Positions 4,041 to 39,058 of a stretch of DNA of 64,000 bases are shown in pieces. The DNA comes from Tenuifilaceae bacterium CYCD (GTDB taxonomy: Bacteria > Bacteroidota > Bacteroidia > Bacteroidales > Tenuifilaceae): contig AP027304.1 of assembly GCA_036322835.1 (NCBI GenBank), forward strand, positions 1,426,001 to 1,490,000, in the 5' to 3' direction. The notes under the pieces were generated by a model. It worked only from the letters and a program-made list of their open reading frames with translations, was not told the origin of the DNA and did no database searches. The position numbers were made by a program, and so were the translations under genes. Position 1 is the stretch's first letter. Each line of letters starts with the position of its first letter.

Positions 4041-5579
4041 CTAGCTTTCCAGTTCCTTTTTCTTCAGTTGCTCATCAATCTCAACAAGTTGCTCAACATA
4101 TTCGCGCGAGTTCGACAGGCGGGGAACCTTATTCTGTCCACCAAGTTTACCACGCTGCCGCATCCATTCAAAGTAGGTTTGTTTGGTAACGCTACGTACT
4201 GTGGGGGCGGAAAGAGTTACGCCCTTGTAACGCTTTGCCTCGTAATCCGAGTTGATTGAGCACAGTGCCGAGTCGAGTTCTTGTGTGAATAGAGATAAGT
4301 TATTGGGCTCAACCACAAACTCAATGATCCATTCGTGTGCACCAGTTTTATTTCGATCCATAAAAATGGGAGCTGCGGTATATTCCTGAATTTGAGCACC
4401 TGTTTTCTCACAGGCTATCTTAAGCGCTTTTTCTGCATTGTCAACAATAACTTCTTCGCCAAATACATTTATAAAGTGACGGGTACGTCCTGTAATCTTT
4501 ATTTTATGGGGTGTTTTGGATGTGAATGTAACTGTATCGCCAATTAGGTAACGCCATAATCCGGAGTTGGTGCTTATAACCATGGCATAGTTTTTTCCAA
4601 CCTCAACATCGCCGATAGTTAGAACTCGTGGTTTTTCCATTGAAATATCCTCGGCAGGAATAAACTCATAGAATATTCCATAATCGAGCATAAGTAGCAT
4701 GTCATCGGAGCTTGGATTGTCCTGAAGGGCAAAGAATCCCTCGCTGGCGTTGTAAGCCTCCATGTAGTTCATTTTAGGCGATGGAATAACCTGCTTAAAC
4801 TGTTCGCGGTAAGGAATAAAACTTACACCCCCATGCATGAATAGTTCTAGGTTGGGCCATACCTCAAGGAGGTTCGATTTTCCGGTGTGGTTTAGGATAT
4901 GCTTTATCATGACTAAATTCCACGATGGGACGCCGGCTATACTGGTTACATTTTCCTTTAAGGTTTCGTGGGTGATTTTATCGAGTTTTTCCTCCCAGTC
5001 GGGGATTAGTGCAACTTTCTGACTAGGTGTGCGGATAAAATCAGCCCACCATGGTTGGTTCTCAATCAGAATTGCTGACAAGTCGCCAAAGTATGAGTTC
5101 ATCGAGAAGTTGTCTATTTGATGACTTCCGCCTAGCGTAAATCCTTTCCCCGATAGAAGATTGTTGTTGGGGTGTAGGTCGGTATATATGGCAATGATAT
5201 CGCGCCCACCCCTGAAGTGGCAATCTTCCAATGCGTCAACACTGACCGGGATGAACTTGCTTTTATTCTGTGTGGTACCAGATGATTTTGCAAACCATTT
5301 TATTTCTGCTGGCCATAGCAGATTTTGTTCCCCTTGTCTAAGTCTATCGATGTAGGGTTTTATTCCTTCATAGTCAACTATTGGTACTCGTTTTTGAAAT
5401 TCCTGAATAGATTTGATAGAATCAAAGCCATAGTTTCGTCCATATTCAGTGTCCTTTGCCTTGTTAAGCAATGTGGTAAATGTGTCGAATTGCACCTCGG
5501 CTGGATATTTCCGGAAAAGATCAATCTGATGCAGTCGTTTTGTGTTTAACCAGCCTAGAATTGAATTGATAAATGGCAT
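4041..5579 (-). CDS. GH3-family acyl-adenylate-forming enzyme
   Basis: A 512-residue member of the GH3 family, named after plant auxin-amido synthetases that adenylate a carboxylic acid and couple it to an amino acid. The three ATP-binding motifs are present: FAKSSGTTQNKSKFIP at about 97-111, YNASEGFF at 276-283, and WRYLIGDTV at 342-350 followed by KITGRTRHF at 361-369. There is no signal peptide, so it is cytoplasmic. In Bacteroidota the substrates of these enzymes are not known. It lies 128 bases downstream of an aminotransferase-like gene on the same strand, which may be meaningful because GH3 enzymes use amino acids. The family is clear; acid and amine substrates are not predictable. Confidence 0.85.
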   Translation of the reverse strand: MPFINSILGWLNTKRLHQIDLFRKYPAEVQFDTFTTLLNKAKDTEYGRNYGFDSIKSIQEFQKRVPIVDYEGIKPYIDRLRQGEQNLLWPAEIKWFAKSSGTTQNKSKFIPVSVDALEDCHFRGGRDIIAIYTDLHPNNNLLSGKGFTLGGSHQIDNFSMNSYFGDLSAILIENQPWWADFIRTPSQKVALIPDWEEKLDKITHETLKENVTSIAGVPSWNLVMIKHILNHTGKSNLLEVWPNLELFMHGGVSFIPYREQFKQVIPSPKMNYMEAYNASEGFFALQDNPSSDDMLLMLDYGIFYEFIPAEDISMEKPRVLTIGDVEVGKNYAMVISTNSGLWRYLIGDTVTFTSKTPHKIKITGRTRHFINVFGEEVIVDNAEKALKIACEKTGAQIQEYTAAPIFMDRNKTGAHEWIIEFVVEPNNLSLFTQELDSALCSINSDYEAKRYKGVTLSAPTVRSVTKQTYFEWMRQRGKLGGQNKVPRLSNSREYVEQLVEIDEQLKKKELES

Positions 5580-5613: not shown

Positions 5614-5707
5614 CAAGAATATTTTTAAAAATTACTTTCGATATCCAAAATATCAAAAAATAAGCAGCTCTACAGAACTGCTTATTGAAATAGGAATATA
5701 TTGATCC

Positions 5708-6844
5708 TTATAGTTTGGCTAAACGGTTAGCGGCTTCAACTATATCATCGTAGTTGGCTGCCAGGTTAACTCTAATTTGCTGTTTACAGGTTTTGTCGTG
5801 ATAAAAGATAGATAATGGAGTTGTGGCAATTTGCTGCTCTTTTATTAGTGTTTCTGCAAACTCAATGTCTTTCAGGTTTGAGATTGACGAGTAGTTTAAC
5901 ATTTGGTAGTATCCTCCGGCATTCGGGAGAATTTTAAATTTTGAATCCTTAAGTATTTGCAGAAAAGCATTACGGTTCCTTTCGAGCAATACCATGTTGG
6001 GGAAGAGCGAACTATTGCGTGCAATGTAATCAGCCATGGCCAGCTGAATGGGATGGTTTACCGAGTTTACGACGGCTCTTTGAACTTTTCGGAATTTTTC
6101 CATCAAAGCCTTAGGCGCGAGACAGTATCCAATTTTCCATCCCGGAACGCCAAGCGATTGGCTTAAGGAGCCAACTATGTAACAGTTGTCGGCTAGTTTG
6201 GGGTAGAAAGTTGCGCTGGCAGCTAACGAGTCGGAGTAAACTATTTCCGAGAGAGATTCATCGCTAATAACCCTGATTTTTGTTCCGTTTATTAATTTTT
6301 GCAGATTTTCCATATCATCAGCCGTAAACACTCTGCCAAGAATGTTATGTGGCGTAGAAACAATTATAAGTTTAGTTCGGGTTGTTATGGCTTTTTGAAC
6401 CTCGTTCCAGTCAATAAGGTTTTCCGAATCCTTAATCTTTATAAAGATTGGACGGGCACCGCACATTTCAATTGAAGTGGAAAGGCTTTCGTACGAAGGT
6501 TCAAGAATGATTGCTTCGTCTCCCTCTTTAACGGTTGAGGCTATTGCTGTAAATATAGCCTGAGTAGCACCGGCTGTAATTGTAATTTCGTTCATAGGAC
6601 AGTATGTCCTAAAGTACTTTTTGCCGATATACTCGCTAAGAACTGTTCTTAGCTGCAGCGCTCCCTCCGACGGGGAATATCCGGTTACTGATTTGAAGTA
6701 GGCTAATATTTTCTCTTCAATAATTTCGGGAAAAGGAAAGGATGAATAATTTCCCGATAGATCTATTGCATTATAATCCTCGGCCAACTTAGACAGGTTG
6801 CCCACGAACGAAAAATCAACTTCTGAATTTGTCTGCTTGGTCAT
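5708..6844 (-). CDS. Class I/II aminotransferase-fold protein lacking the PLP lysine
   Basis: A 378-residue fold-type I protein closest in layout to the YbdL/KAT methionine (kynurenine) aminotransferases. Conserved parts include GATQAIFTA near residue 92, LEPSYES near 114, STPHN with N167, the GWKIGYCLAP stretch at 235-244, and the late IRVNLA segment with the substrate-carboxylate arginine. The expected lysine in the S-x-S-K-x(5)-G-W-K/R-x-G-Y motif is Q229 (codon CAA at 6160-6158), and the PLP-contacting tyrosine of the D-E-x-Y motif is L198. Surrounding residues are intact and the reading frame is clean. A normal aminotransferase is therefore unlikely; a pseudoenzyme, a PLP or substrate sensor, or a lysine-independent activity is possible. 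The gene stands between recO and the GH3 gene on the same strand. Confidence 0.85.
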   Translation of the reverse strand: MTKQTNSEVDFSFVGNLSKLAEDYNAIDLSGNYSSFPFPEIIEEKILAYFKSVTGYSPSEGALQLRTVLSEYIGKKYFRTYCPMNEITITAGATQAIFTAIASTVKEGDEAIILEPSYESLSTSIEMCGARPIFIKIKDSENLIDWNEVQKAITTRTKLIIVSTPHNILGRVFTADDMENLQKLINGTKIRVISDESLSEIVYSDSLAASATFYPKLADNCYIVGSLSQSLGVPGWKIGYCLAPKALMEKFRKVQRAVVNSVNHPIQLAMADYIARNSSLFPNMVLLERNRNAFLQILKDSKFKILPNAGGYYQMLNYSSISNLKDIEFAETLIKEQQIATTPLSIFYHDKTCKQQIRVNLAANYDDIVEAANRLAKL

Positions 6845-6941: not shown

Positions 6942-7670
6942 CTAGTCAAAAAGTTGGGTTAGAACCGATAGAGAGTTAAATTCTAACGAACTACCAAGAT
7001 GAAATTTATAGTAACTCAGGATTCCATTTATTATTTGTAACCGTTGATGATGATTCAGCACCAGTTGCTCCGTTTTATGAAATGGTGTAGCGATTACGGT
7101 GCTTAACAGTTTACTTGGTTCTGGCTCAAGGTAGAAATTATGTTGTGGTGGCTGCGACACAAACGTTCCATTTTTATAGTCAAAATACTTGGTTGGTTCC
7201 GACCATGTATTTGAGGGGAAAAAACCAAGATGCCTGGAGTGTTGCATCATGAATATCAGGTGAAAGTTTGCCACTCCGCTATGCATAATATCCAACAGAT
7301 GAATTGAGTTCTCTAAAAAGGTATAGAATAAATCGTTGGGTTCCTCCTCCTTAACCGTTCGGTATACTACTTCGCTCAGGAAAAGAGCGATACTCCTTTT
7401 TACTGGATCAAAAGGAATTGTATTTTGATTAATAGCAAATGAAACTTCTTTCAACCGACACAAATCGCTTCCTTCCTTTTTGTAAAAAACAACATCCAAA
7501 ATTGCAAATGGCTGAAAGTAAACAGCCTTTCCGGGCGATTTTCCTTTACTATATGCGCTATTTACCAAAAAAGAGATCCTTCCAAAGGCTTCGGAGTAAC
7601 AGTAGGCTATTAGGCTGTTATCTTTATACCTTATTGTATGCAGAACAATTGCTTTCGATTTTTGCAGCAT
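6942..7670 (-). CDS. recO: DNA repair protein RecO
   Basis: A 242-residue protein with the RecO N-terminal OB-fold, starting MLQKSKAIVLHTIRYKDNS, followed by the helical C-terminal domain. RecO works with RecR and RecF to load RecA onto SSB-coated single-stranded DNA during gap repair. The phrases YSEAFGRISFLV and PFAILDVVFYKK fit Bacteroidota RecO. No zinc-finger cysteine cluster is seen, as is common in this phylum. The start is five bases after the porZ-like stop codon, so the two are almost surely co-transcribed. Confidence 0.88.
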   Translation of the reverse strand: MLQKSKAIVLHTIRYKDNSLIAYCYSEAFGRISFLVNSAYSKGKSPGKAVYFQPFAILDVVFYKKEGSDLCRLKEVSFAINQNTIPFDPVKRSIALFLSEVVYRTVKEEEPNDLFYTFLENSIHLLDIMHSGVANFHLIFMMQHSRHLGFFPSNTWSEPTKYFDYKNGTFVSQPPQHNFYLEPEPSKLLSTVIATPFHKTEQLVLNHHQRLQIINGILSYYKFHLGSSLEFNSLSVLTQLFD

Positions 7671-7675
7671 GTGTG

Positions 7676-9967
7676 CTATTTTATAAATAGAATTTTGGTA
7701 ACAGCGGTTTGCTCTCCTTTGCTATCGGCGCAGAAAACTAGGTATACCCCTGTGGCAACTTTATTCCCACGTAAACTGTTTCCATCCCAGGTTGCCATTC
7801 CTCCTTCCGATTTTGTTTCGTAGATCAGGTTTCCGTTTATGTCGGTTATTTTTACTATGGTTTCTTCAACTAGCCCAACAATTGTTATTTTCCCAGAATA
7901 ACCCGGAGGTACTGGATTTGGATACGAGTAAACCTTCCCGAATTTTTCGGATGGTTCGTTGGCATCGCCGCGGTATGATACCATTCCTTTATCTGTAGCA
8001 ATAAAAACTTCTCCGGATGTAGGATGAATCTTTACATCAAGTATGTTGTTTGATGGTAGCGGACTGTTTTCGGCAGTAAAGTGTAGGAGTTCCTTGGTTC
8101 CGTCGGAGTTAAAAAGGTATAACCCCGATTTAGCGGTCCCAAACCATTTGCGGTTGCCTCCATCAACGGTAACTGAAGTTACCGATTCGGTTGCTAAAAG
8201 GTAAACAGCGAGTCCTTCAACCACATCGGGAATCTTTATTTTTTGCAGGTAAAAACTTCCATCAAAAACCTTCTCGGGGTTGTAGCTCAGCAAAACACCT
8301 TCCGAAGTCCCAAGCCAGAGATAGTTATCCTTATCGAAAGCGAGGGAGTATATGTCGACATTGATAATATTTCCATCCCTATCATAGGGAAGAAATTTTT
8401 TATACTTATCGTCATCCTTACTGTCTATGTTACTTCCTGGATTTAAAACAAATAAACCGTTGTTGCGGGGCAATATCAACCACAATGAACCGTATTCCGA
8501 ATAGCGTAGAGTAGACGTTTTATCTGCATTTATTGTTGATGAATAAGGGAACGAAACCCAGGTGCCATCGGTTTTCCGTACTGATATCGGATTTGCCACA
8601 GCTGTATTAGCAACCCAAAGGTTTCCTTTGCCATCAAAAGCAAGGCCGCTAATCCTGCAAAACGGAGAGTTGGGCAGAATGGTTTGAAGCGTGCTATTTT
8701 CGGGAGTAAAGTGTGCCACTAAGTTATCATCCTCAAATTGGTACACACCATCACCCCAGCTTCCCACAAAATAGGATGATGGATTTTGCGGGTTAAACTC
8801 AACAACGGCGGCATCGTGTCCGCCCCAATCGGCATGGTAATTCCATTCTTCGTTTGCAAAATCATGGATGATAAAGTTATGCCAAAGGTTTGAGTACGTT
8901 GCATCGTAGCCTCCCGATGCCACAATAACTCTATCCTTGCTTAATCCAACGGAAAAGCAATTGTTATTGAATGGTCCACCGGGTTTCGCGGCGAGTTGGC
9001 TCGAGGTGGTGCCCACTACTAAACCAGCATCATTATCAGCAACTGCAAATCTATCCGCATCTATGGACTTTGTAACTTTGGGTTTAAACGATCCTGTACA
9101 GGTATAGCCTGTTAGGGTTATTCCTTTTACGCCAGAAGTGTTGTAGAAAGATATTCCAGCGGTTGATGTTACAATCACCTTGCTGCTGTTCATGTTTATA
9201 GATAAAGCCTCGGCGTAAGGTCTGTCTATTTCGCTCCAAGCATTTCCATCGTAACGCCAAACAACGTCGTTAGAGGCCTCTACGCTTTCCATTGCAAATA
9301 GAACATCCGATGTTGCTGTAACCCCTATACAGTTGTTACTTGGATTGGTAAAGTTTGTTGCATGGCTCCATCTTGCGTAGTTTACAAGCAGAGGGTCTGA
9401 AACAGAAGCGCTCATCAGGCCATTTTCGGTAGCTGCCCAAAACTGATTGTTGAATACAGTAAGGTTGTTAATTTTTAGGTTGTTTCCACCATCTCCCAGA
9501 AAATAGGTGTCTTTAACTTCTTTTTTGTCGGGATCAATCACCACAATACCAAAGTCTGTTGAGGTGTATATTTTATCTTGATATAGGAGAAAATCGTTAA
9601 TGATTTTAGTCCCCGTTAGGGATTTCTCTTTGATATCAGGGATGTTGACAATTTTATCAGGGTAAACAAGATCAATATTTCCGCTTTCGTACCCAACAGC
9701 AAGAATGTTTTTTGAGTTAAGATATACCATTGCCGATATTCCCACTTCCGAGAGCCCATTTACTTTGGTTAGTTTATCAATCTCTCCATTACTCTGGTTG
9801 TAGGTAAATATTCCTGTTGATGTTGCGCAGTAAACTTTGTTGTTGCCTATAGTTACGAGTTCCGATTCATTGTAGGAGAAATGATCGCGCCAGGTATAAT
9901 GAGGAATCTGGCCAAACCCTTTTAGGCCAATTATTAGTATCGGGAATAATAGGATGATCCTAAACAT
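7676..9967 (-). CDS. porZ: PorZ-like beta-propeller protein of the type IX secretion system
   Basis: A 763-residue exported protein. A signal peptide of about 20 residues ends near GFGQ. Two beta-propeller-like domains follow, with two-component-regulator-propeller style blades (for example NLWVANTAVANP, NYLWLGTSEGVLLSYNP, NRKWFGTAKSGLYLFNSDG). The C-terminal ~80 residues start at VYSYPNPVPPGYSG and form a T9SS-type sorting domain. This three-part design matches PorZ, a part of the surface attachment complex with PorU, PorV and PorQ in Porphyromonas gingivalis. Close linkage to recO agrees with my recollection of other Bacteroidota but was not checked. A generic propeller T9SS cargo is the alternative. 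Confidence 0.75.
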   Translation of the reverse strand: MFRIILLFPILIIGLKGFGQIPHYTWRDHFSYNESELVTIGNNKVYCATSTGIFTYNQSNGEIDKLTKVNGLSEVGISAMVYLNSKNILAVGYESGNIDLVYPDKIVNIPDIKEKSLTGTKIINDFLLYQDKIYTSTDFGIVVIDPDKKEVKDTYFLGDGGNNLKINNLTVFNNQFWAATENGLMSASVSDPLLVNYARWSHATNFTNPSNNCIGVTATSDVLFAMESVEASNDVVWRYDGNAWSEIDRPYAEALSINMNSSKVIVTSTAGISFYNTSGVKGITLTGYTCTGSFKPKVTKSIDADRFAVADNDAGLVVGTTSSQLAAKPGGPFNNNCFSVGLSKDRVIVASGGYDATYSNLWHNFIIHDFANEEWNYHADWGGHDAAVVEFNPQNPSSYFVGSWGDGVYQFEDDNLVAHFTPENSTLQTILPNSPFCRISGLAFDGKGNLWVANTAVANPISVRKTDGTWVSFPYSSTINADKTSTLRYSEYGSLWLILPRNNGLFVLNPGSNIDSKDDDKYKKFLPYDRDGNIINVDIYSLAFDKDNYLWLGTSEGVLLSYNPEKVFDGSFYLQKIKIPDVVEGLAVYLLATESVTSVTVDGGNRKWFGTAKSGLYLFNSDGTKELLHFTAENSPLPSNNILDVKIHPTSGEVFIATDKGMVSYRGDANEPSEKFGKVYSYPNPVPPGYSGKITIVGLVEETIVKITDINGNLIYETKSEGGMATWDGNSLRGNKVATGVYLVFCADSKGEQTAVTKILFIK

Positions 9968-26283: not shown

Positions 26284-26533
26284 AAATATAGCATACAGAT
26301 AATTAGAAACATTGATTGAATTTTATTTGTGAAACTAACAATGTTTATTTGTCATACCCTTATGGGGCTTGGTTTATGTATCAATTGGCAATAAATCATT
26401 TATTTAATGTTGGCCATGTGATAATTTAATATTCAAGATTTTACTAAATTGCGAACTATTTTAGGAGGAAATTTTTTTATAGTATTTTGTGCTATCAAGG
26501 ATAGATATAATTTATAAACCAATTAATTATTTT

Positions 26534-29161
26534 ATGAAAAAATTACTATTTCTGGCATTATTTAGTGTAAGCGCATTTTTTTTAAATGCTGCTCCCTTTA
26601 AATTTTTGCCTTACAAAGTAACCCAGCCCAATGGTGAGGTTATAGATTGTTTTGTTTCTGGTGATGAATTCTATAACTGGATTCACGATAAGGAGGGCTA
26701 TACAATTATTCAGAATGCTGATGGGTATTACTATTATGCTACACAAACTGATAGTAAAATAGCATCTTCATCGTACCGAGTAAATTCGGTAAATCCTGAT
26801 AAAATAGGAATTAAGAAATGGATAAAGGTGTCTAAACAGGAGTACGAAAAAAGGAAATTAAGGTATCAGGTGCCATCTTCTCAAAAGGCTATTGGCTCAA
26901 ACAAAGCCCCTCATACTGGAACTTTGAACAATATTGTGATATACATTCGCTTTGCCGATGATGCCGAAATTGCAACTACTCGAGATAGTTATGATAACAT
27001 TATGAACTCAACTACTGGGTATAGTTTGAAGACTTACTATAACGAGGTTTCGTACAACAATTTTACAATAAGCAGTACGCATTATCCAACATGTACATCT
27101 CCTTCAACAAGCAATGCCTCTTACAAAGACTCGCATCAAAGAAACTATTTCCGCCCATACAATGCTACAACCAACCCAATAGGTTATAATGGAGATAGCG
27201 AAGCGGCTCAACGAGAGCATCAGTTGCTTTATGATGCCGTAACTTGGATAAATGCAAACTCTCCAGTAGATCAAAGTTTAAACATTGATGCTGATGCTGA
27301 TGGGTACGTAGATAATGTTTGCTTTATGATTAAAGGCAATTGCGATGGTTGGTCCGATTTGCTTTGGGCTCACAGATGGGTACTTTATACAAAAGAAGTT
27401 TATATAAATAGTAAGAGAGTTTATGATTATACATTCCAACCCGAAAATCAGGTTGCGGCAAGTGTTCTTTGCCATGAAATGTTTCACGCACTAGGCGCTC
27501 CCGATTTGTATCACTACAACGAAAACGATTTTTCTCCAGTGGGCGATTGGGATATTATGGAATCGGGCGAGGGCCACATGGGGGCTTATATGAAATGGAA
27601 GTATGCAGATGCTAAATGGATAACCTCAATTCCAGAAATAACTTCCTCTGGAACATATACATTAAATCCTTTAACATCTTCAACAAATAATTGCTATAAA
27701 ATAGGCTCTCCTAATTCTGATAAAGAATTTTTTATTCTTGAGTACAGAAAAAAAGAAGGAACTCTTGAGAGCAATATTCCCGGTAGTGGCCTTATAGTTT
27801 ACCGTATAAATACAGATTTTGAAGGAAATGCTGATTTTGATAACGCTTCAGTGTTTGATGAGGTCTACATCTATCGACCCAACGGGACAAATCTTGTGAA
27901 CGGTTACGTTTCATCGGCATATTTTTCTTCAGAAGCTAGCAGAACCAGCATTAACGATGCCACAAATCCTAAATGTTTTCTACATGATGGGATGCCTGGA
28001 GGACTAGACATCAGCGAAGTTGGGACTGCTGGATCAACCATTTCGTTTAAAGTCTATATTTCTGATATTAAATCGCCCACAAATTTTACCGCTAGCAGTG
28101 TTTCAGAAAACCAAATAGACCTATCGTGGAGCCTTAATACCGACGGAAACGATGTTGTTGTAGCATACGCCTCTACCGGAATAATTGGTTCTCCTGCAAA
28201 AGGAACAACATATGCTGTTGGAGCATCAATTCCCAATGGAGGAACTGTTATCTATTCGGGGAATGCGACTTCTCTTAGTCACACATCATTGACCCCTGGA
28301 ACAAATTACACATATTGTATTTGGTCAAAAACATCAAATAATGAGTACTCCCCGGGAGTTTCTGTAAGCACATCAACAGATTGTGGAACACCGGCATTAC
28401 CAATAACACAAGGTTTTAACGGAACGGAAATATCTCCTTGTTGGACTATAGTAAATGTTGCCCAAGGGACAACTCAGGATGAATCAGCATCTATTACACA
28501 GGTAAGCGTATCTACGTTACCCGATGTCAATCCTTATGAAGGAACACACATGGTTAAGTTTAACTCTGCAATGTGCGGAGCTGGTAATTCTATGAGATTA
28601 GAAAGCCCCTCATTTTCTAGCGTTGGGAAAACTCAGGTTCCCATTAGTTTCTCGTGGCACAAAGATTCTCAATGGCCAAACTACCCTGATTATATGACAC
28701 TGCAATGGTCCTTGGATGGAACAACCTGGAACAATGGAGATACTTATCAACGTTACAGCACAACCATAGGATGGACGCAGCAAACCTACAATTTACCATC
28801 TGAAGCATTGGGACAAGAAAATATAAAGATAGGGTTCTTATTTACATCAGCATACGGTTACAACTGCTATCTCGATAATGTTAAAATAACCGGAGTAGCA
28901 ACATCTATTGGGGATGTTGATGCTGATAAAGTATCTGTATACCCGAACCCAACCGATGGTAATTTTACAGTAAAATCTACCGAAGGTTTTAAAACATTGC
29001 TATTAGAGTTACATGATATCTCTGGAAGAATTGTTTACTCTAATTCATACCACAACTCGGATAACGCAGCGGTTAATACATCTGGACTTTCAAGAGGCAT
29101 TTATTTGCTGAAGGTTTCTGCAGATGGTAGAGTTGAGAATATTAGGGTTGTTATAGAGTAA
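26534..29161 (+). CDS. Secreted M6-family metalloprotease with T9SS sorting domain
   Basis: An 875-residue exported protease of the immune-inhibitor-A family. The signal peptide MKKLLFLALFSVSAFFLNA starts at the ATG at 26534; the frame extends 15 codons upstream to a GTG but that would bury the signal. A propeptide-like part follows, then the M6 catalytic domain with HEMFHALGAPD (H314, E315, H318), a zinc site completed by the late Asp. Next come an FN3-like domain (about 512-610), a jelly-roll/MAM-like domain (about 615-790), and a T9SS type A C-terminal domain from about 794 (SVYPNPTDGNF to the end). It should be sent through the T9SS to the surface. It is monocistronic. Confidence 0.9.
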   Translation: MKKLLFLALFSVSAFFLNAAPFKFLPYKVTQPNGEVIDCFVSGDEFYNWIHDKEGYTIIQNADGYYYYATQTDSKIASSSYRVNSVNPDKIGIKKWIKVSKQEYEKRKLRYQVPSSQKAIGSNKAPHTGTLNNIVIYIRFADDAEIATTRDSYDNIMNSTTGYSLKTYYNEVSYNNFTISSTHYPTCTSPSTSNASYKDSHQRNYFRPYNATTNPIGYNGDSEAAQREHQLLYDAVTWINANSPVDQSLNIDADADGYVDNVCFMIKGNCDGWSDLLWAHRWVLYTKEVYINSKRVYDYTFQPENQVAASVLCHEMFHALGAPDLYHYNENDFSPVGDWDIMESGEGHMGAYMKWKYADAKWITSIPEITSSGTYTLNPLTSSTNNCYKIGSPNSDKEFFILEYRKKEGTLESNIPGSGLIVYRINTDFEGNADFDNASVFDEVYIYRPNGTNLVNGYVSSAYFSSEASRTSINDATNPKCFLHDGMPGGLDISEVGTAGSTISFKVYISDIKSPTNFTASSVSENQIDLSWSLNTDGNDVVVAYASTGIIGSPAKGTTYAVGASIPNGGTVIYSGNATSLSHTSLTPGTNYTYCIWSKTSNNEYSPGVSVSTSTDCGTPALPITQGFNGTEISPCWTIVNVAQGTTQDESASITQVSVSTLPDVNPYEGTHMVKFNSAMCGAGNSMRLESPSFSSVGKTQVPISFSWHKDSQWPNYPDYMTLQWSLDGTTWNNGDTYQRYSTTIGWTQQTYNLPSEALGQENIKIGFLFTSAYGYNCYLDNVKITGVATSIGDVDADKVSVYPNPTDGNFTVKSTEGFKTLLLELHDISGRIVYSNSYHNSDNAAVNTSGLSRGIYLLKVSADGRVENIRVVIE

Positions 29162-29216: not shown

Positions 29217-30050
29217 TTATTCTTTCTTTTTGAGCGATTTAAATGGATTGAGTAATCCTGAGTATTCGTATAAATCGCAGTAAACCGATCCAACAAAAAT
29301 TTCGAATCGAATGCGTATAGGAATGCAGTTTTCATCGTTGGAGAACCATATAGTCATATCATCCTTTGATTTAAAAACCCTCCCAGTTTGTACAACGGGC
29401 ATAAACTTCATGCATTGAACTTCACCAAAGTTAGTTTTTACATTTTCGTAGCCCTTAAATCGGAGCATTAGAGGAAATTTTTCATCGGTAAAGTACGCGT
29501 CCACCACAATTAGTTGATCCTTCTGAGGTGGCTTTTTAAGAAGAATATGCCGAAAATAGTAAAAGGATGAAAGGATATCCTGACACCCCTTGACTACCAC
29601 GAAAGTTCCACTTTTTGAACTAATTACAATAGAGGAGTCCTTTCGGCTCCAATGATCCCATTTTTGAGTACTATAGTGGCGGTAACGGTTTTCGTGAATA
29701 TTGCGGATTGAATAGTAGGGCCAGTCTGTTTCAGGGTCAGTATAGCTTTCGTAGGTGTCGTCGACATTGTAAAGGCTATTGGCAATTCCTACAGTTTTGC
29801 CATTAAGGTACAGATGGTTTGCTTGCTTTCCCTCGTATGTTCCCTTGCGGACTTCTAGTACTGCCTCTCCTCCGTTTATAAACCCGTAGTAAACTTTATA
29901 CTTAAGTTTTTCCCCAGCGGTAAACGATTTTTTGGTTTGTGAGTATGCTGAATTACTATGCAAAAGGCTTAAGCAGACCAGCAGAAAAACCAAACTATAG
30001 GAAAATATTTGAAAACGATTATTTTTCTGGAATGACTTTATTCTTAGCAA
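29217..30050 (-). CDS. DUF3108-like exported protein
   Basis: A protein of about 277 residues with a hydrophobic export segment (FSYSLVFLLVCLSLLHSNSAYSQ). The mature part starts SFTAGEKLKYKVYYGFINGG, the typical DUF3108 opening, and contains VDAYFTDEKFPLMLRFKGYENV and a late IPIRIRFEIFVGSVYCDLYEY. The family is periplasmic, of unknown function. The start is uncertain. An ATG at 30113 would overlap tsaB by 95 bases and give a long leader before the signal; I prefer the TTG at 30050, which gives LRIKSFQKNNRF plus a hydrophobic core and only a 32-base overlap. Last gene of the tolC-mfp-tsaB-DUF3108 run. Confidence 0.7.
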   Translation of the reverse strand: MLRIKSFQKNNRFQIFSYSLVFLLVCLSLLHSNSAYSQTKKSFTAGEKLKYKVYYGFINGGEAVLEVRKGTYEGKQANHLYLNGKTVGIANSLYNVDDTYESYTDPETDWPYYSIRNIHENRYRHYSTQKWDHWSRKDSSIVISSKSGTFVVVKGCQDILSSFYYFRHILLKKPPQKDQLIVVDAYFTDEKFPLMLRFKGYENVKTNFGEVQCMKFMPVVQTGRVFKSKDDMTIWFSNDENCIPIRIRFEIFVGSVYCDLYEYSGLLNPFKSLKKKE

Positions 30051-30708
30051 CTGTTGCCACAAAATCCTTAAGATAGAATGGCTCAAAGTAGGCAATATCT
30101 TCAAATATTTCATCTTTATAGGCTTTTAATGCCAAGGGGAGCATAAAGCGTGCCGATGGCTCAAAATTATCGATAAAGATAGCATTTTGATTTGATATAA
30201 CTGATCTGCACTTTGGTGCTCCACTTCCAAAGAATAGGATTTTGTTGCTTTGAAGTTGCTCCGCAAAGGAGTTGACATCTACAATAATTGCTTCAACCTC
30301 GCTTATCTTATTCAAAGAATTGTTGAACAATGCGGTGTACACTTCCATTCTTCGGGCATCAATCATGGGGCAATACAGATCGCTTGGCATACCATTAATA
30401 CCATATACCATTGAGTCTAAACTTCCAATTGCGAGGAGCGGTTTGCCAAGGGAGTAGCAAATTCCCTTGGCAAGCGAAACCCCAATGCGTAAACCGGTGT
30501 ACGATCCTGGACCTTTGCTAACGGCAACAGCGTCTATTTTTGAAATATCAAATGCATGCTCAGCCATCAACTCGTTGATCAATACTGATAACTGCGAGGC
30601 ATGTGCTTTAGCATCGGACACTTCTTTATAGCCAATAACCCCCTTTTCGTTTCCTAAGGCAACGGAACACGTAGTGGTTCCTGTTTCAATGCAAAGTATA
30701 TGAATCAT
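30019..30708 (-). CDS. tsaB: tRNA threonylcarbamoyladenosine biosynthesis protein TsaB
   Basis: A 229-residue ASKHA-fold protein that, with TsaD and TsaE, transfers threonylcarbamoyl to A37 of ANN-decoding tRNAs. ILCIETGTTTCSVALG opens the protein, and VSKGPGSYTGLRIGVSLAKG near residue 65 is the core signature. TsaB is a non-catalytic partner of TsaD, which is not encoded here. The start is six bases after the stop of the membrane fusion protein gene. Confidence 0.92.
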   Translation of the reverse strand: MIHILCIETGTTTCSVALGNEKGVIGYKEVSDAKAHASQLSVLINELMAEHAFDISKIDAVAVSKGPGSYTGLRIGVSLAKGICYSLGKPLLAIGSLDSMVYGINGMPSDLYCPMIDARRMEVYTALFNNSLNKISEVEAIIVDVNSFAEQLQSNKILFFGSGAPKCRSVISNQNAIFIDNFEPSARFMLPLALKAYKDEIFEDIAYFEPFYLKDFVATVAKNKVIPEK

Positions 30709-33763: not shown

Positions 33764-36700
33764 ATGAATATGATAAAGAAACTACTCCTGTTATCAACGG
33801 CTTTGTTGATTTTTACTGGTGCTAATTCGCAAATCAACCAGTTTCCCCTTAAAGGTACAAAGAGTACCAAAAATGTAAAATTTGTACCTAAAAGCAATAA
33901 CAGCTATCAACTCAAGGTTAGTTTGGATAAGTTGAATTGGAAAGTTAAGAAGGAAAAGAATGGTGAGGTTTACACCGAACTCTGGTTCGATAAGAGCAAC
34001 GCGGTGGGTGAGGTTGGGACTCCTCAGTTACCAGCCTATAAAAAGTTGATATTATTGCCTTACGGCGCTACGGCAACAGCCAAAGTTAAAAGCTATACCC
34101 AAGCGGAGTTTACTTTTAACGATCTGGGCGTTAAAAATCAACTCGTTCCGGTTCAGCCATCCATTCGGAAGGATCAGGATTCAAGCAGTGTTCCCTTTCA
34201 ATTTAAGAAAGAAGCATACTTAAACAAAGCATACATCCAAAATTCTATAGTTAAGCTAGAGGTTTTAGGCAATATGCGTTCCTACACTGTGGCGCGCATT
34301 GTTGTTACTCCGGTTGATTACAATCCTGCATTGGGCAGTATTAAAGTTTACAACGATTTAGATATTGAGGTAGACATAACGGGATCGACAAAAAGCGCTA
34401 CAGATTTAAAAGCCATTAGTAGCCCATATTTCAATATTTTAACTAAATCGGCACTCAATACAACGGAAACGGTTTATGATCAGCATCCCGACTTGACTAA
34501 ATATCCTGTTAAAATGTTGATCATCAGTAACAGAATGTTCGAAACTTCTCTTGCCCCATTTGTTGCATGGAAAACACAAAAAGGTATTAAAGTTACTGTT
34601 GCTTATACTGATGTTATTGGAACTACTACTGCTCAAATTAAGTCCTATATTCAAGGACAATACAATGCAGCAACAGCAGAAGATCCCGCACCAACATTCC
34701 TTGTTTTTGTTGGTGATGTGGCACAAGTTCCATCGTCGGCTACAGGTAGTCAGTCGCTTAAGCAAACAGATCTTTACTATGCCAGTGTTGATGGTGATAT
34801 TTTCCCCGAGATGTACTATGGAAGAATGTCTGCAACAACAACGCAGCAGCTCGATAATATCATCAATAAAATTCTTTATTACGAAAGGTATGAGTTTGCC
34901 GATCCTCAGTATTTAAATAATGTTACATTGATTGCCGGAGCCGACCCAACCTATAATGCAGCAGTTGGACAACCTACCATAAAGTATGGAACTGCAAACT
35001 ACTTTAATCCATCTAAAGGATTTACTACTGTTAATGAGTTTGGTGTTAGCAATGACCCCAATAACACTTCAGAAAGTTCAGGTTATACCGGATGCTACGA
35101 TGCATCTAAGATTTCTGTTGGCTTTATCAACTACACAGCTCATTGTAGCGAAACAACCTGGGGAGATCCGGAACTTACTATTTCGGAAATAAATGCATTT
35201 AGCAACCAAGCGAAATACCCTTTGGCCGTTGCAAACTGTTGCTTGTCTGGAGATTTTGGAACGAGCGAGTGCGTTGGTGAGGCTTGGATTCGTGCTCAGG
35301 ATAAGGGCGCTGTAACCTACATAGGATCATCGCCAAGCAGTTACTGGAAAGAAGACATGTACTGGTCGGTTGGAGCATTTGCTATGTCAGGAATAAATAG
35401 CGGCTATGTTCCAACTTTTGCAGAAACAACTACTGGCGCTTACGATGCCGCATTTGTTAGTAATTATCGCACAACAGGTGCATTAGTATTTGCAGGAAAC
35501 CTTGCAGTGACAGAGGCTAATAATCAAAGTTATCCTACCGATGTTACTCCCACCTATTACTGGGAAGCATATAATATACTTGGAGATCCGTCGCTGATGC
35601 CATACTTTACATCTGCTGATGAAAATCAAGTAACACATGAAACAACAGTTCCTGTTGGTGTGAGTTCTTTGAAGGTAAGCGCATTGGAAAGTTCTTATGT
35701 GTCAATTAATAAAGGTTCAGAAATATTGGGAACTTCCTATTTTGAACAAACTGGCGAAGTTGATGTGCCAGTAACAACTGTGCAAGAACCATGCGATTTA
35801 GTGGTAACGGTGACCCGTCCTCAAACTATTCCATATATTGATACAGTTAGTGCCGTTGTAGTTTCAGGACCTTATGTTACATTAAATTCAACAAGTATAA
35901 ATGATTCACAGGAAAACAATGACGGAAAGATTGATTTTGGTGAAACCGTGAAGGTGAATCTTATTGTAAAAAATGTTGGACTTGAACCATCCACAAATAC
36001 AAGAGTACTGCTAACAAATCAAGATGGTTTGGCAACGCTTACCAGTAGCGATTCTGTTTTTATTGGAACAGTTCAGAATGGTACTGTGAATAACCCAATC
36101 ACGCTAAATGATGCATTTACTTTCGATATTTCTTCGAATGTTGCAGATAACTCAACCGAGAAGTTTACCTTAACCTTTAAGAGCGATCAAGGAACATGGA
36201 CGTCAACCTTAGCGCTAAAGATTTATGCCCCTCAAATCAGCATAGGTGATTTTTCTATTGACGATTCTGCTCTTGGAAACAACAACCAAGCGGCCAACGT
36301 AGGAGAATCATTCTATGGCGAGATCGTAATTAAGAATTCTGGAAATTCCGATGTGAAGGATCTTATTGCTAGTGTTGCTATACCAGATTCCTTGAGAGAT
36401 ATTGTTGGGTTGAATTATGAACCATTCGATAATATTGAGATCGCTTCGGGTGGTACCTATACCCTTAAATTTAGAATCAATGTAAATCCAGATATTACAG
36501 AAACGATGACTATACCGATTAATGTGGCAGTATCATCTCCATCCAATAGTTATGTTAGCGCTAAGGCCGATAAGAGTTTTGAGGTGGTTTCGGACAATAC
36601 CATAGTAATGAAGAATCAGAGCATCACTACATGTAATGCAATATTTACCGATTCAGGTGGTGAAAGTTCTAATTATTCAAATTCTGAATCGTTTATAACA

Positions 36701-39058
36701 ACAATTACCTCTGCAAGTGAAATAGCAAAGTTGAAGGTATCTTTTAATGAATTTTCTTTGGAGTCAGGATATGATTATCTTTACGTTTATGATGGTGCAA
36801 CCACATCATCAAGTCAGATTTCCGGTAGTCCTTTTAGTGGGGCGACTATTCCTGCTGATATTATTGCATCGGGTAAATCGCTTACGTTTAAGTTTACGTC
36901 CGATAGTGAGGTTTCTCGCCCTGGTTGGAAGGCAACCGTTTCATGTGTTGAACCAACAAGTGTTCCCAGCTGTGTTTCCAATCCCTACCCATCCAATGGG
37001 GCTACCGATGTTTTGCCAAGTAACTTAACTTGGACTGGTTCTTCCGATGCACAGTTTTACGATGTATATATTGGTTATAGTTCAGATAATTTGGCATTGC
37101 TTTCTAGGGTGACAGAATCGAGCATTGCCGTTAATTTAGAAACAAACAAAGGGTATTTCTGGAAGGTTATTCCTGGGAACTATATTGGAATTTGTGAAAA
37201 CACATGCGATGTTTGGAGTTTCCAAACGGGAACTTTGGGTAATACCTTAATGACAAATGGCACGGTGGCCGTAGACTCGACTTGGTTTTACGATTCTGGT
37301 TCATCGAGCAGCAATTATAAGGATGGTGAGGATTACATTTTAACCTTTACCCCAAAAAGCGCGGGAATGAAATTAAAGGTTGCCTTTGAACAATTTTCCG
37401 TTGAATCACAAACCGAATGTAATTACGACTACCTTAGCGTTTACGATGGGGCTACAACAAGCAACACTTTAGTTGGTAAGTATTGTGGAACAACAATCCC
37501 TTCAACGTATACATCAACAAGTGCAAATGGATCATTAACGTTTAAGTTCTATTCCGATGGAAGCCAAAACCTGTCGGGTTGGAAGGCTAAAATTACATCC
37601 GTTGGAACTGTTACTTTGTACAATTTTACTGTTTCAGTTAAAAATAACGGAACGCCAGTCAGTGGTGCAGCTGTTACCGTTGATGGAGTTGTTAAGATTA
37701 CTGCCGCAACTGGCGAGGCTACATATAGTTTATCCGCTGGCAGTTACAATTATACCGTGAATGCGGCGGGCTACCTTCCTGTTTCTGGAAATGCTACAAT
37801 TAGTGGGGCTGGACAAACTCTGAATGTAGATTTAACCAGAATATATGGTTCTACAATTACAGTTTTAGATGATGCTACCAGCGAACCAATTCAGGGCGCA
37901 ATGCTTTCAATCAATGGCAATAATTACTATACAAATCCATCGGGTGTGGCATCAATAAGCACCGAGGCTGGAGTACAATCAGTGACGATTGAAAAGTCTG
38001 GTTATACTAATGTTACATCAGATATTAATGTGGTTAGCGATGGAGGTAATTTTAACTTTACACTAAAACAAGGACTATACAATTTTACAGTTAATGTTAA
38101 GGATACCGATGGAAATCCTATCGAGTCGGCTTCGGTTCAGGTAGGCGAATTAACGGCCACAACTGATGCCACTGGTACAACTACCGTGGAACTTCCTTTT
38201 GGAACACAAAAATTTGTTGTAGTAAAAGATAGGTACTTACCCGCGGAGCAATGGGTTAATGTGGGAGGTGTTGCCCAAACTGAAATTGTTTTAGATACTC
38301 TACTCTCCGAATTGGGCAATATTAAGTTTACTGTAATTGGACAAAATTCCACAGAATATCTACTACTTGAAAATGCAACTGTATCGATCCTGTTTGGCGA
38401 TTTAGTTTACAACCAACTTTCAACAAATTCGATTGGAGAAGCAAGCGTGACTCTTCCTGATGCTAATTATAAGTACATTATTGAGAAATCGGGATACAGA
38501 CCTACGGATTATAAAGAGTTTACAATTAGTAATACCGATTATAGTTTTAAAGATACCCTATTGCAGGCTTCATATAGAATTGCATTTAGCGTGAGCTCAA
38601 AAGGTAGTCCAATAGAGGGAGCTACGGTTGCCTTGAGCGGTTATAATTCTATTGTAACAGATAGTCAGGGGGAAGTAGTGTTTACATGCGATAACTACAC
38701 TAAGGGTGTTGAGTATTCCGTTCAGAAGGATGGGTACTATAATTACAACGGAACGGTAGATATCGATGCAGATAAAACTGTGACCGTTGACCTTCTATCT
38801 ACAGGTATCGAGGATGTTGATGCTGATTTACCCAGAATATACCCAAATCCTGCTACTGATAATATCACTGTTGTTTCGGTTCAACCAATTATGCAGGTAC
38901 AAGTAATCAGTATTACCGGTTCTTTGGTTCTGCAGATTAATACCAATGGCTTAAACTCCATCATTATTCCTGTTAGCCAAATCACAAGGGGTAGTTATAT
39001 TGTTAGAGTTGTATCGGCAACAGGTAAAATTTCTCATGTTAAACTTATTAAAATATAG
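33764..39058 (+). CDS. Gingipain-like C25 cysteine protease with CUB and repeat domains, T9SS cargo
   Basis: A 1764-residue secreted protein. Signal peptide MNMIKKLLLLSTALLIFTGANS, a propeptide (to about 250), then the C25 catalytic domain (about 255-620) with H460 in NYTAHCSE and C493 in ANCCLSGDF. The His-Cys spacing of 33 equals that of gingipain RgpB (H440, C473). Behind it come an Ig-like module, two CARDB-like modules (about 705-945), a CUB domain (about 953-1058), an FN3-like piece, a second CUB (about 1161-1277), and four to five carboxypeptidase-regulatory-like beta modules (about 1285-1680), ending in a T9SS type A sorting domain (from about 1684, RIYPNPATDN). It should be cleaved and anchored at the surface. 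The protease specificity is not predictable. Confidence 0.9.
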   Translation: MNMIKKLLLLSTALLIFTGANSQINQFPLKGTKSTKNVKFVPKSNNSYQLKVSLDKLNWKVKKEKNGEVYTELWFDKSNAVGEVGTPQLPAYKKLILLPYGATATAKVKSYTQAEFTFNDLGVKNQLVPVQPSIRKDQDSSSVPFQFKKEAYLNKAYIQNSIVKLEVLGNMRSYTVARIVVTPVDYNPALGSIKVYNDLDIEVDITGSTKSATDLKAISSPYFNILTKSALNTTETVYDQHPDLTKYPVKMLIISNRMFETSLAPFVAWKTQKGIKVTVAYTDVIGTTTAQIKSYIQGQYNAATAEDPAPTFLVFVGDVAQVPSSATGSQSLKQTDLYYASVDGDIFPEMYYGRMSATTTQQLDNIINKILYYERYEFADPQYLNNVTLIAGADPTYNAAVGQPTIKYGTANYFNPSKGFTTVNEFGVSNDPNNTSESSGYTGCYDASKISVGFINYTAHCSETTWGDPELTISEINAFSNQAKYPLAVANCCLSGDFGTSECVGEAWIRAQDKGAVTYIGSSPSSYWKEDMYWSVGAFAMSGINSGYVPTFAETTTGAYDAAFVSNYRTTGALVFAGNLAVTEANNQSYPTDVTPTYYWEAYNILGDPSLMPYFTSADENQVTHETTVPVGVSSLKVSALESSYVSINKGSEILGTSYFEQTGEVDVPVTTVQEPCDLVVTVTRPQTIPYIDTVSAVVVSGPYVTLNSTSINDSQENNDGKIDFGETVKVNLIVKNVGLEPSTNTRVLLTNQDGLATLTSSDSVFIGTVQNGTVNNPITLNDAFTFDISSNVADNSTEKFTLTFKSDQGTWTSTLALKIYAPQISIGDFSIDDSALGNNNQAANVGESFYGEIVIKNSGNSDVKDLIASVAIPDSLRDIVGLNYEPFDNIEIASGGTYTLKFRINVNPDITETMTIPINVAVSSPSNSYVSAKADKSFEVVSDNTIVMKNQSITTCNAIFTDSGGESSNYSNSESFITTITSASEIAKLKVSFNEFSLESGYDYLYVYDGATTSSSQISGSPFSGATIPADIIASGKSLTFKFTSDSEVSRPGWKATVSCVEPTSVPSCVSNPYPSNGATDVLPSNLTWTGSSDAQFYDVYIGYSSDNLALLSRVTESSIAVNLETNKGYFWKVIPGNYIGICENTCDVWSFQTGTLGNTLMTNGTVAVDSTWFYDSGSSSSNYKDGEDYILTFTPKSAGMKLKVAFEQFSVESQTECNYDYLSVYDGATTSNTLVGKYCGTTIPSTYTSTSANGSLTFKFYSDGSQNLSGWKAKITSVGTVTLYNFTVSVKNNGTPVSGAAVTVDGVVKITAATGEATYSLSAGSYNYTVNAAGYLPVSGNATISGAGQTLNVDLTRIYGSTITVLDDATSEPIQGAMLSINGNNYYTNPSGVASISTEAGVQSVTIEKSGYTNVTSDINVVSDGGNFNFTLKQGLYNFTVNVKDTDGNPIESASVQVGELTATTDATGTTTVELPFGTQKFVVVKDRYLPAEQWVNVGGVAQTEIVLDTLLSELGNIKFTVIGQNSTEYLLLENATVSILFGDLVYNQLSTNSIGEASVTLPDANYKYIIEKSGYRPTDYKEFTISNTDYSFKDTLLQASYRIAFSVSSKGSPIEGATVALSGYNSIVTDSQGEVVFTCDNYTKGVEYSVQKDGYYNYNGTVDIDADKTVTVDLLSTGIEDVDADLPRIYPNPATDNITVVSVQPIMQVQVISITGSLVLQINTNGLNSIIIPVSQITRGSYIVRVVSATGKISHVKLIKI

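What the first reader, a model, noticed from the sequence alone, without database searches (positions are those of the whole stretch)
5708..6844. Aminotransferase-fold protein with the PLP lysine replaced by glutamine
In the alignment-free register S-x-S-K-x(5)-G-W-x-x-G-Y the lysine position is Q229 (CAA) and the Tyr of D-E-x-Y is L198, while N167, the GAT motif and the terminal Arg stay. Two active-site losses with an otherwise intact frame suggest a selected pseudoenzyme or a lysine-independent PLP protein (compare lysine-less PLP enzymes such as GDP-perosamine-type dehydratases, where His replaces Lys).
Basis: partly seen in the sequence, partly recalled or inferred. Interest (0 to 1): 0.68.

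Follow-up and report, generated by a model that had tools for sequence, protein, structure and literature searches.

The report
Aminotransferase relative without its catalytic lysine
A gene beside the DNA-repair gene recO in a Bacteroidales genome encodes a well-folded relative of a methionine aminotransferase that lacks the lysine needed for its chemistry; its relatives have lost that lysine repeatedly while selection keeps the protein intact, so it has probably taken on a job that does not need vitamin B6 chemistry.

Summary
ORF 5708-6844 (minus strand, 378 aa) is a YbdL/KAT-type class I aminotransferase homologue with Gln229 (CAA) at the Schiff-base Lys and Leu198 at the Tyr of DExY; Asp195, Asn167, Gly92-Ala-Thr and Arg358 remain. 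It is neither a sequencing error nor unique: both other held genomes of the genus also lack the Lys (N, H). In the family, 10 of the 18 genomes with the gene lack it, and one genus has also lost Asp195, Asn167 and Arg358.

Among 223 distinct homologues, 31 of 47 copies directly downstream of recO lack Lys (E, I, L, V, P, S, Q, N, H), against 4 of 140 unlinked copies. A tree needs at least 8 state changes. In the 7 of 15 Lys-less pairs that could be measured, dN/dS is 0.03-0.14. AlphaFold models of two such proteins superpose on YbdL (Z 53-55). The ten best other class I homologues in the genome keep Lys.

Best reading: a maintained pseudoenzyme that no longer transaminates, arisen repeatedly from a recO-linked aminotransferase. 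Its present work is inferred, perhaps PLP-free ligand binding or scaffolding. The ColD-like idea is not supported, since the replacement residue differs even within the genus. Ten full-text searches (two uninformative) showed no account of it.

The parts
5708..6844 (-). Lys-less YbdL/KAT-type aminotransferase homologue, 378 aa
   Evidence: Intact ORF; PF00155 2.9e-48; nearest solved chain 1u08 YbdL; model pLDDT 92.1
6158..6160 (-). Codon 229, CAA, Gln in place of the Schiff-base Lys
6251..6253 (-). Codon 198, CTC, Leu in place of the Tyr of DExY
6260..6262 (-). Codon 195, Asp (PLP N1 contact by homology), retained
   Evidence: Position from the translation; residue
5771..5773 (-). Codon 358, Arg (substrate carboxylate contact by homology), retained
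   Evidence: Position from the translation; residue
5765..5767 (-). Codon 360, Asn; Cys in 168 of 168 unlinked Lys-bearing homologues
5659..5686 (-). Terminator-like hairpin (12 pairs, T-rich tail) just after the stop codon, before GH3
   Evidence: a consensus match only (13 found in the region, 5.5 expected)
6942..7670 (-). recO, directly upstream, 97-bp gap
   Evidence: TIGR00613 68.1 bits over cut-off 48.7
7676..9967 (-). porZ (type IX secretion), 5-bp gap to recO
   Evidence: NF052228 664.9 bits over cut-off 260
4041..5579 (-). GH3-family gene downstream, a neighbour in part of the relatives
   Evidence: PF03321 4.1e-65; synteny

Best explanation
The gene is a recO-linked homologue of YbdL/KAT-type aminotransferases that has become a maintained pseudoenzyme. 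SHOWN by sequence: the Schiff-base Lys is absent here, in both other held genomes of the genus and in several other lineages of the recO-linked gene; the fold is predicted intact; and the Lys-less pairs that could be measured are under purifying selection. INFERRED: the protein cannot form the PLP internal aldimine and does not transaminate. Its retained work is non-catalytic: most likely binding of a carboxylate or amino-acid ligand in the old substrate pocket and/or a scaffold role as a dimer. In the ligand version Arg358 would hold the carboxylate and the polar residue at 229 (Gln here, Glu in the Marinilabiliaceae and f29 clade) would meet the amino group. In genus g6, where 229 is Ile or Leu and Arg358 is gone, only a structural role seems left. 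Ligand and partner are unknown. The confidence given is for the core claim (maintained, not a transaminase); the ligand-binding step alone is about 0.25.
For: Gap-free alignment of Q229 with the YbdL lysine. Congeners N and H; 10 of the 18 family genomes with the gene lack Lys. 31 of 47 recO-linked copies lack Lys against 4 of 140 unlinked. At least 8 state changes on an 88-row tree, 9 if losses only. dN/dS 0.03-0.14 in 7 of 15 Lys-less pairs. No internal stop in the matches listed. Two models of Lys-less proteins match YbdL over the full length, Z 52.9 and 54.6. P116, W146, T157, P165, G170, D177, L181, E196, L217 and P343 invariant in 32 of 32 linked Lys-less copies while the cofactor contacts T94, Y198 and K237 erode. 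The ten best other class I proteins of the genome keep Lys. Arg358 kept in 22 of 23 copies with a polar 229 and in 4 of 13 with an apolar one.
Against: No biochemistry. In the window's own genus synonymous sites are saturated, so dN/dS there could not be measured, and four of the seven estimates elsewhere have dS above 2. The gene is absent beside recO in seven family genomes inspected, one of them in the Lys-less genus g6, so it is dispensable. Cofactor-site positions as a class are not significantly less retained than other canonical positions (0.52 against 0.68, p = 0.057). The recO association and the Arg358 association rest on related rows; the independent-pairs test of recO linkage had three pairs and no power. 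Asn360 also occurs in 6 of 19 linked copies that keep Lys, so it is not a mark of Lys loss alone. No ligand, partner or phenotype is known.
Confidence: 0.75

Rival explanations
1. Slow decay: the aminotransferase became dispensable and the open frames are remnants on the way to loss.
For: Many different residues at 229, even within one genus; gene absent beside recO in seven of the eight family genomes that have recO but no hit (the eighth, a truncated contig, was not inspected), including one genome of the Lys-less genus g6; progressive loss of other site residues in g6.
Against: dN/dS 0.03-0.14, similar to recO and porZ of the same pairs (0.06-0.10), in 7 of 15 Lys-less pairs; the Glu clade holds Glu in 15 of 15 members; identity in the window's genus equals that of RecO (74-77% against 73-79%).
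Confidence: 0.12
2. A PLP- or PMP-dependent enzyme working without the lysine, as in ColD-type dehydratases.
For: The window protein keeps D195, N167, T94, Y118, K237 and R358, so cofactor binding without a Schiff base is possible; Glu is constant in one clade.
Against: The replacement differs within the genus (Q, N, H) and elsewhere includes I, L, V and P, which cannot act as a base; genus g6 lacks the cofactor contacts altogether.
Confidence: 0.08
3. A non-catalytic subunit that pairs with an active aminotransferase, as LCB1 does in serine palmitoyltransferase.
For: Precedent of a Lys-less fold-type I subunit (PMC3794620, passages read); in one genome, G115, a Lys-less and a Lys-bearing copy coexist (L207, L208).
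Against: No second YbdL-type copy at E 1e-40 in the family genomes; in the own genome the next homologue scores 84 bits at 27% identity. No second aminotransferase gene was seen as a conserved neighbour, but only window genes were used as queries.
Confidence: 0.05

Closest known systems
E. coli YbdL, methionine aminotransferase (PDB 1u08), KAT clade of class I aminotransferases
   Same: Same fold over the full length (Z 52.9, TM 0.95, 31-32% identity), same Asp, Asn and carboxylate Arg
   Different: Lys replaced by Gln, DExY Tyr replaced by Leu, a further Tyr (121) replaced by Leu; scores below the NCBIfam cut-off for methionine aminotransferase (323 against 420 bits)
Rv3778c of Mycobacterium tuberculosis (PMC12910592, passages read)
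   Same: A PLP-enzyme relative that lacks the conserved Lys and is called likely non-catalytic
   Different: Described there as distantly related to cysteine desulfurases and selenocysteine lyases, not as a class I aminotransferase
LCB1/SPTLC1 subunit of serine palmitoyltransferase (PMC3794620, passages read)
   Same: Homologue of a PLP enzyme that lacks the PLP-binding Lys yet is kept and needed
   Different: Works as a heterodimer with an active homologue; no close active homologue was found in the family genomes here
ColD-type sugar 3-dehydratases (recalled; no call gave a paper, one search was uninformative)
   Same: Aminotransferase fold with the Lys replaced
   Different: Fixed His and PMP chemistry (recalled); variable residue here, and the DegT match is much weaker (48.8 against 165.3 bits)

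Membership tests
YbdL/KAT-type class I aminotransferase (as an enzyme) | Class I aminotransferase sequence family and fold | tested here: met
   PF00155 165.3 bits over cut-off 19.7; YbdL Z 52.9 over 377 residues
YbdL/KAT-type class I aminotransferase (as an enzyme) | Schiff-base lysine | tested here: not met
   Gln229; so not filed as an aminotransferase
YbdL/KAT-type class I aminotransferase (as an enzyme) | Tyr of DExY | tested here: not met
   Leu198
YbdL/KAT-type class I aminotransferase (as an enzyme) | PLP N1 Asp, Asn and C-terminal carboxylate Arg | tested here: met
   D195, N167, R358
YbdL/KAT-type class I aminotransferase (as an enzyme) | NCBIfam methionine aminotransferase score over the curated cut-off | tested here: not met
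   NF006569 323 of 420; NF009079 279.2 of 481
YbdL/KAT-type class I aminotransferase (as an enzyme) | Transaminase activity and PLP binding | not testable with these tools
   Needs purified protein
Pseudoenzyme (non-catalytic homologue of an enzyme) | Loss of an essential catalytic residue in an intact, conserved fold | tested here: met
Pseudoenzyme (non-catalytic homologue of an enzyme) | Maintained by selection | tested here: met
   dN/dS 0.03-0.14 in 7 of 15 Lys-less pairs; not measurable in the window's own genus
Pseudoenzyme (non-catalytic homologue of an enzyme) | Absence of activity | not testable with these tools
   Needs assay
ColD-type PMP dehydratase | His at the lysine position | tested here: not met
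   Gln here; His in one congener only
LCB1-type heterodimer subunit | Active close homologue as partner | tested here: inconclusive
   No second copy at E 1e-40 in the family genomes; a distant partner is not excluded

The most novel reading that the evidence does not exclude
One aminotransferase lineage beside recO has been turned, on several separate occasions, into a PLP-free protein that binds an amino or keto acid: the old carboxylate Arg358, a new polar residue at the lysine site (Glu in 15 of 15 members of one clade) and a new Asn360 would form the ligand site, and the protein would report metabolite state to, or scaffold, a partner of the recO-porZ unit.
Probability: 0.22. Interest if true: 0.8.

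Novelty: new variant of a known kind. Interest (0 to 1): 0.6.

Why it matters
The Lys-less fold-type I proteins that I read about or recall are single cases. Here a recO-linked gene has crossed from enzyme-like to lysine-less repeatedly, with Lys-bearing sisters inside the same families (the window's family, f97, f82). That gives matched pairs for asking what lets an enzyme lose its chemistry and still be kept by selection. It also warns that a 'methionine aminotransferase' label is unsafe for recO-linked copies in Bacteroidales: 31 of the 47 examined lack the essential lysine.

Tried and rejected
Sequencing error at CAA: rejected, since both other held genomes of the genus lack Lys. Another lysine at the place: none aligns there in any of 36 Lys-less rows. 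ColD-like chemistry as a family trait: rejected. 'GT' at 187-188 as a mark of linked copies: 50 of 51 linked but also 47 of 168 unlinked Lys-bearing copies, so not diagnostic. Cofactor-site positions as a class less retained: 0.52 against 0.68 over 12 and 85 positions, p = 0.057, not significant. Independent-pairs test of recO linkage against Lys loss: 3 pairs on supported branches, no power. The same for nine site residues against Lys loss: 5 pairs, none significant. The four unlinked Lys-less copies (L207, L206, L290, L280) gave no RecO hit upstream with the HMM made here; one search listed their ORFs by their first residues only and did not change this. A Lys-less solved structure: the best sequence match of the Glu-type protein L167 at E 1e-40 was again YbdL.

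Literature: ten searches were answered. I saw their listings, and passages of three papers; no paper was read whole. Searches returned nothing; one paper on malaria vitamin B6 enzymes; the listing (15 of 19 papers) shows nothing on this family. Searches were uninformative (broad or prefix matches). Absence in print is only as strong as these searches of open-licence papers.

Rows left out before counts: L019 and L079, two pieces of the gene of G018 on separate contigs (both with Lys), so 223 of 225 ORFs were classed. Identical or contained ORFs were merged: 283 loci to 241 to 225. 'RecO-linked' means a RecO HMM hit on the same strand with its midpoint less than 1900 bases upstream. The tree used 88 of 223 rows: all linked, all Lys-less and all non-DEVYEH rows, plus 25 of the rest at random.

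Full report
WHAT IS THERE. The ORF lies on the minus strand, window 5708-6844, 378 aa. It is a class I aminotransferase homologue (PF00155, 2.9e-48). Its best NCBIfam model is methionine aminotransferase NF006569, but at 323 bits against a cut-off of 420. The nearest solved protein is E. coli YbdL, 1u08. In a gap-free stretch of that alignment Q229 (CAA, 6158-6160) stands on the YbdL lysine, and L198 (CTC, 6251-6253) on the Tyr of DEVY. N167, D195, G92-A-T, K237 and R358 stay. Position 121, Tyr in 168 of 168 unlinked Lys-bearing homologues, is Leu. An AlphaFold model has mean pLDDT 92.1 and matches YbdL with Z 52.9, 1.9 A over 377 residues, TM 0.95.

WHOSE GENOME. The window lies in a genome of one 3.92-Mb contig. 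Genome G021 of the same family carries the gene on a 170,095-base contig, the length of a Perlabentimonas gracilis contig found for the same gene. NCBI places that species in Tenuifilaceae, Bacteroidales. I infer a Tenuifilaceae-type genome; the species is unknown to me.

CLOSE RELATIVES. The two other held genomes of the genus have N (G001) and H (G002) at the site, at 74 and 77% identity. Of 27 held genomes of the family, 18 have a match at E 1e-40: 10 without Lys (Q, N, H, Q, and I or L in six of genus g6) and 8 with Lys. In g6, 6 of 6 copies have also lost D195, N167 and R358. RecO was found in 26 of 27 genomes. Eight of these had no hit for the gene; I inspected seven of the eight recO loci and none has a homologue within the 1.5 kb beside recO, including G013 of g6.

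WIDER SAMPLE. Of 393 order-level genomes 144 had a match at E 1e-55. 16 of the 144 carry a Lys-less copy, three of them in the window's family (the states of G283 and G373 are read). From 294 loci, 283 held the gene, giving 225 distinct ORFs; 223 were classed. Directly downstream of recO: 47, of which 31 lack Lys and 16 keep it. Beside GH3 only: 4, of which 1 lacks it. Unlinked with enough flank: 140, of which 4 lack it. Too near a contig edge: 32, all with Lys. Fisher's p is 2e-19 for recO-linked against unlinked, but the rows are related, and an independent-pairs test had only 3 pairs. Degenerate copies below E 1e-55 would be missed, so the Lys-less count is a lower bound.

HISTORY. On an 88-row maximum-likelihood tree built without column 229, Lys and no Lys need at least 8 changes. 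If Lys is never regained and the root is put among canonical copies, 9 losses. Linked copies do not form one clade. Replacement residues are lineage-specific: Glu in 15 of 15 of a clade of Marinilabiliaceae and family f29, Pro or Ser around Puteibacter and f72, Ile or Val in two f97 copies whose two sisters keep Lys, Arg in one f82 and one f55 copy, Ile or Leu in g6. Tyr198 is already gone in 13 of 19 linked copies that keep Lys, so that change seems often to come first.

SELECTION. Of 15 Lys-less pairs, 7 gave an NG86 estimate: 0.03, 0.06, 0.07, 0.08, 0.08, 0.11 and 0.14, four of them with dS above 2. RecO and PorZ in the same pairs, where measurable, gave 0.06-0.10. The other 8, among them the three pairs of the window's genus, are saturated. 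In that genus the protein is 74-77% identical between species, RecO 73-79%, PorZ 66-68%. In the 32 linked Lys-less copies several non-catalytic residues are invariant while T94, Y198 and K237 are mostly lost. As a class, cofactor positions are not significantly less retained (p = 0.057).

CONTROLS. Of 15 other PF00155 matches in the genome, the ten best were aligned and all have Lys at the site. A Glu-type protein from Carboxylicivirga sp. M1479 (L167) gives a model of pLDDT 94.0 that matches YbdL with Z 54.6.

SURROUNDINGS. Upstream on the same strand lie recO (97-bp gap), porZ (5-bp gap from recO) and a Ham1-family gene. A 12-pair terminator-like hairpin lies just after the stop codon, which suggests that the unit ends with this gene and that GH3 is transcribed apart. 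That is a consensus match, not proof.

HOW IT MAY WORK. A review of the class calls the internal aldimine with the active-site lysine a prerequisite for aminotransferase activity (PMC9309667, passages read), so the protein is most likely not a transaminase. What it does is not shown. Arg358 is kept in 22 of 23 Lys-less copies with a polar residue at 229 and in 4 of 13 with an apolar one (p 7e-5, rows related). Cys360, constant in 168 of 168 unlinked Lys-bearing copies, is Asn in 26 of 36 Lys-less rows, but also in 6 of 19 linked rows with Lys. This would suit a PLP-free pocket for an amino or keto acid in the polar-229 group and a structural role in g6. I give 0.75 to a maintained non-transaminase and about 0.25 to the ligand version.

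WHAT IS KNOWN. Lys-less PLP-enzyme relatives are on record: hLCB1 (PMC3794620, passages) and Rv3778c (PMC12910592, passages). ColD with a fixed His is recalled. None of these is a recO-linked class I homologue. Ten searches showed no paper on this family, two of them uninformative.

VERDICT. The pseudoenzyme reading is supported by sequence evidence and extended from one protein to a recurrent event; the lysine-independent-catalysis reading is not supported. New variant of a known kind; interest 0.6.

Noticed in passing
window 4041-5579 (-): GH3-family protein whose best NCBIfam model is lyso-ornithine lipid synthetase OlsH, but below its cut-off (430 against 620 bits); a neighbour of recO or of this gene in part of the relatives.
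   Followed up: no
G013 (L305), L299-L302, L316, L317: Seven family genomes have recO and porZ but no homologue of the gene beside recO; in three of them GH3 comes directly after recO.
   Followed up: partly
window codon 360 (5765-5767) and relatives: Cys360, constant in canonical homologues, is Asn in 26 of 36 Lys-less rows and in 6 of 19 linked Lys-bearing rows.
   Followed up: partly
L185 (contig NZ_AYLO01000104.1, titled Methyloglobulus morosus KoM1): A gammaproteobacterial record carries a copy much like the Bacteroidota ones; contamination or transfer.
   Followed up: no
L207 and L208 (G115): One genome with both a Lys-less (Glu) and a Lys-bearing YbdL-type copy.
   Followed up: no
window 26489-29161 (+) and 33764-39058 (+): Two large proteins with type IX secretion tails: an M6-type metalloprotease domain, and 1764 aa with a weak serine-peptidase match.
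   Followed up: no
window 29217-30113 (-) and 30019-30708 (-): Two same-strand ORFs of 298 and 229 aa overlap by 95 bases.
   Followed up: no
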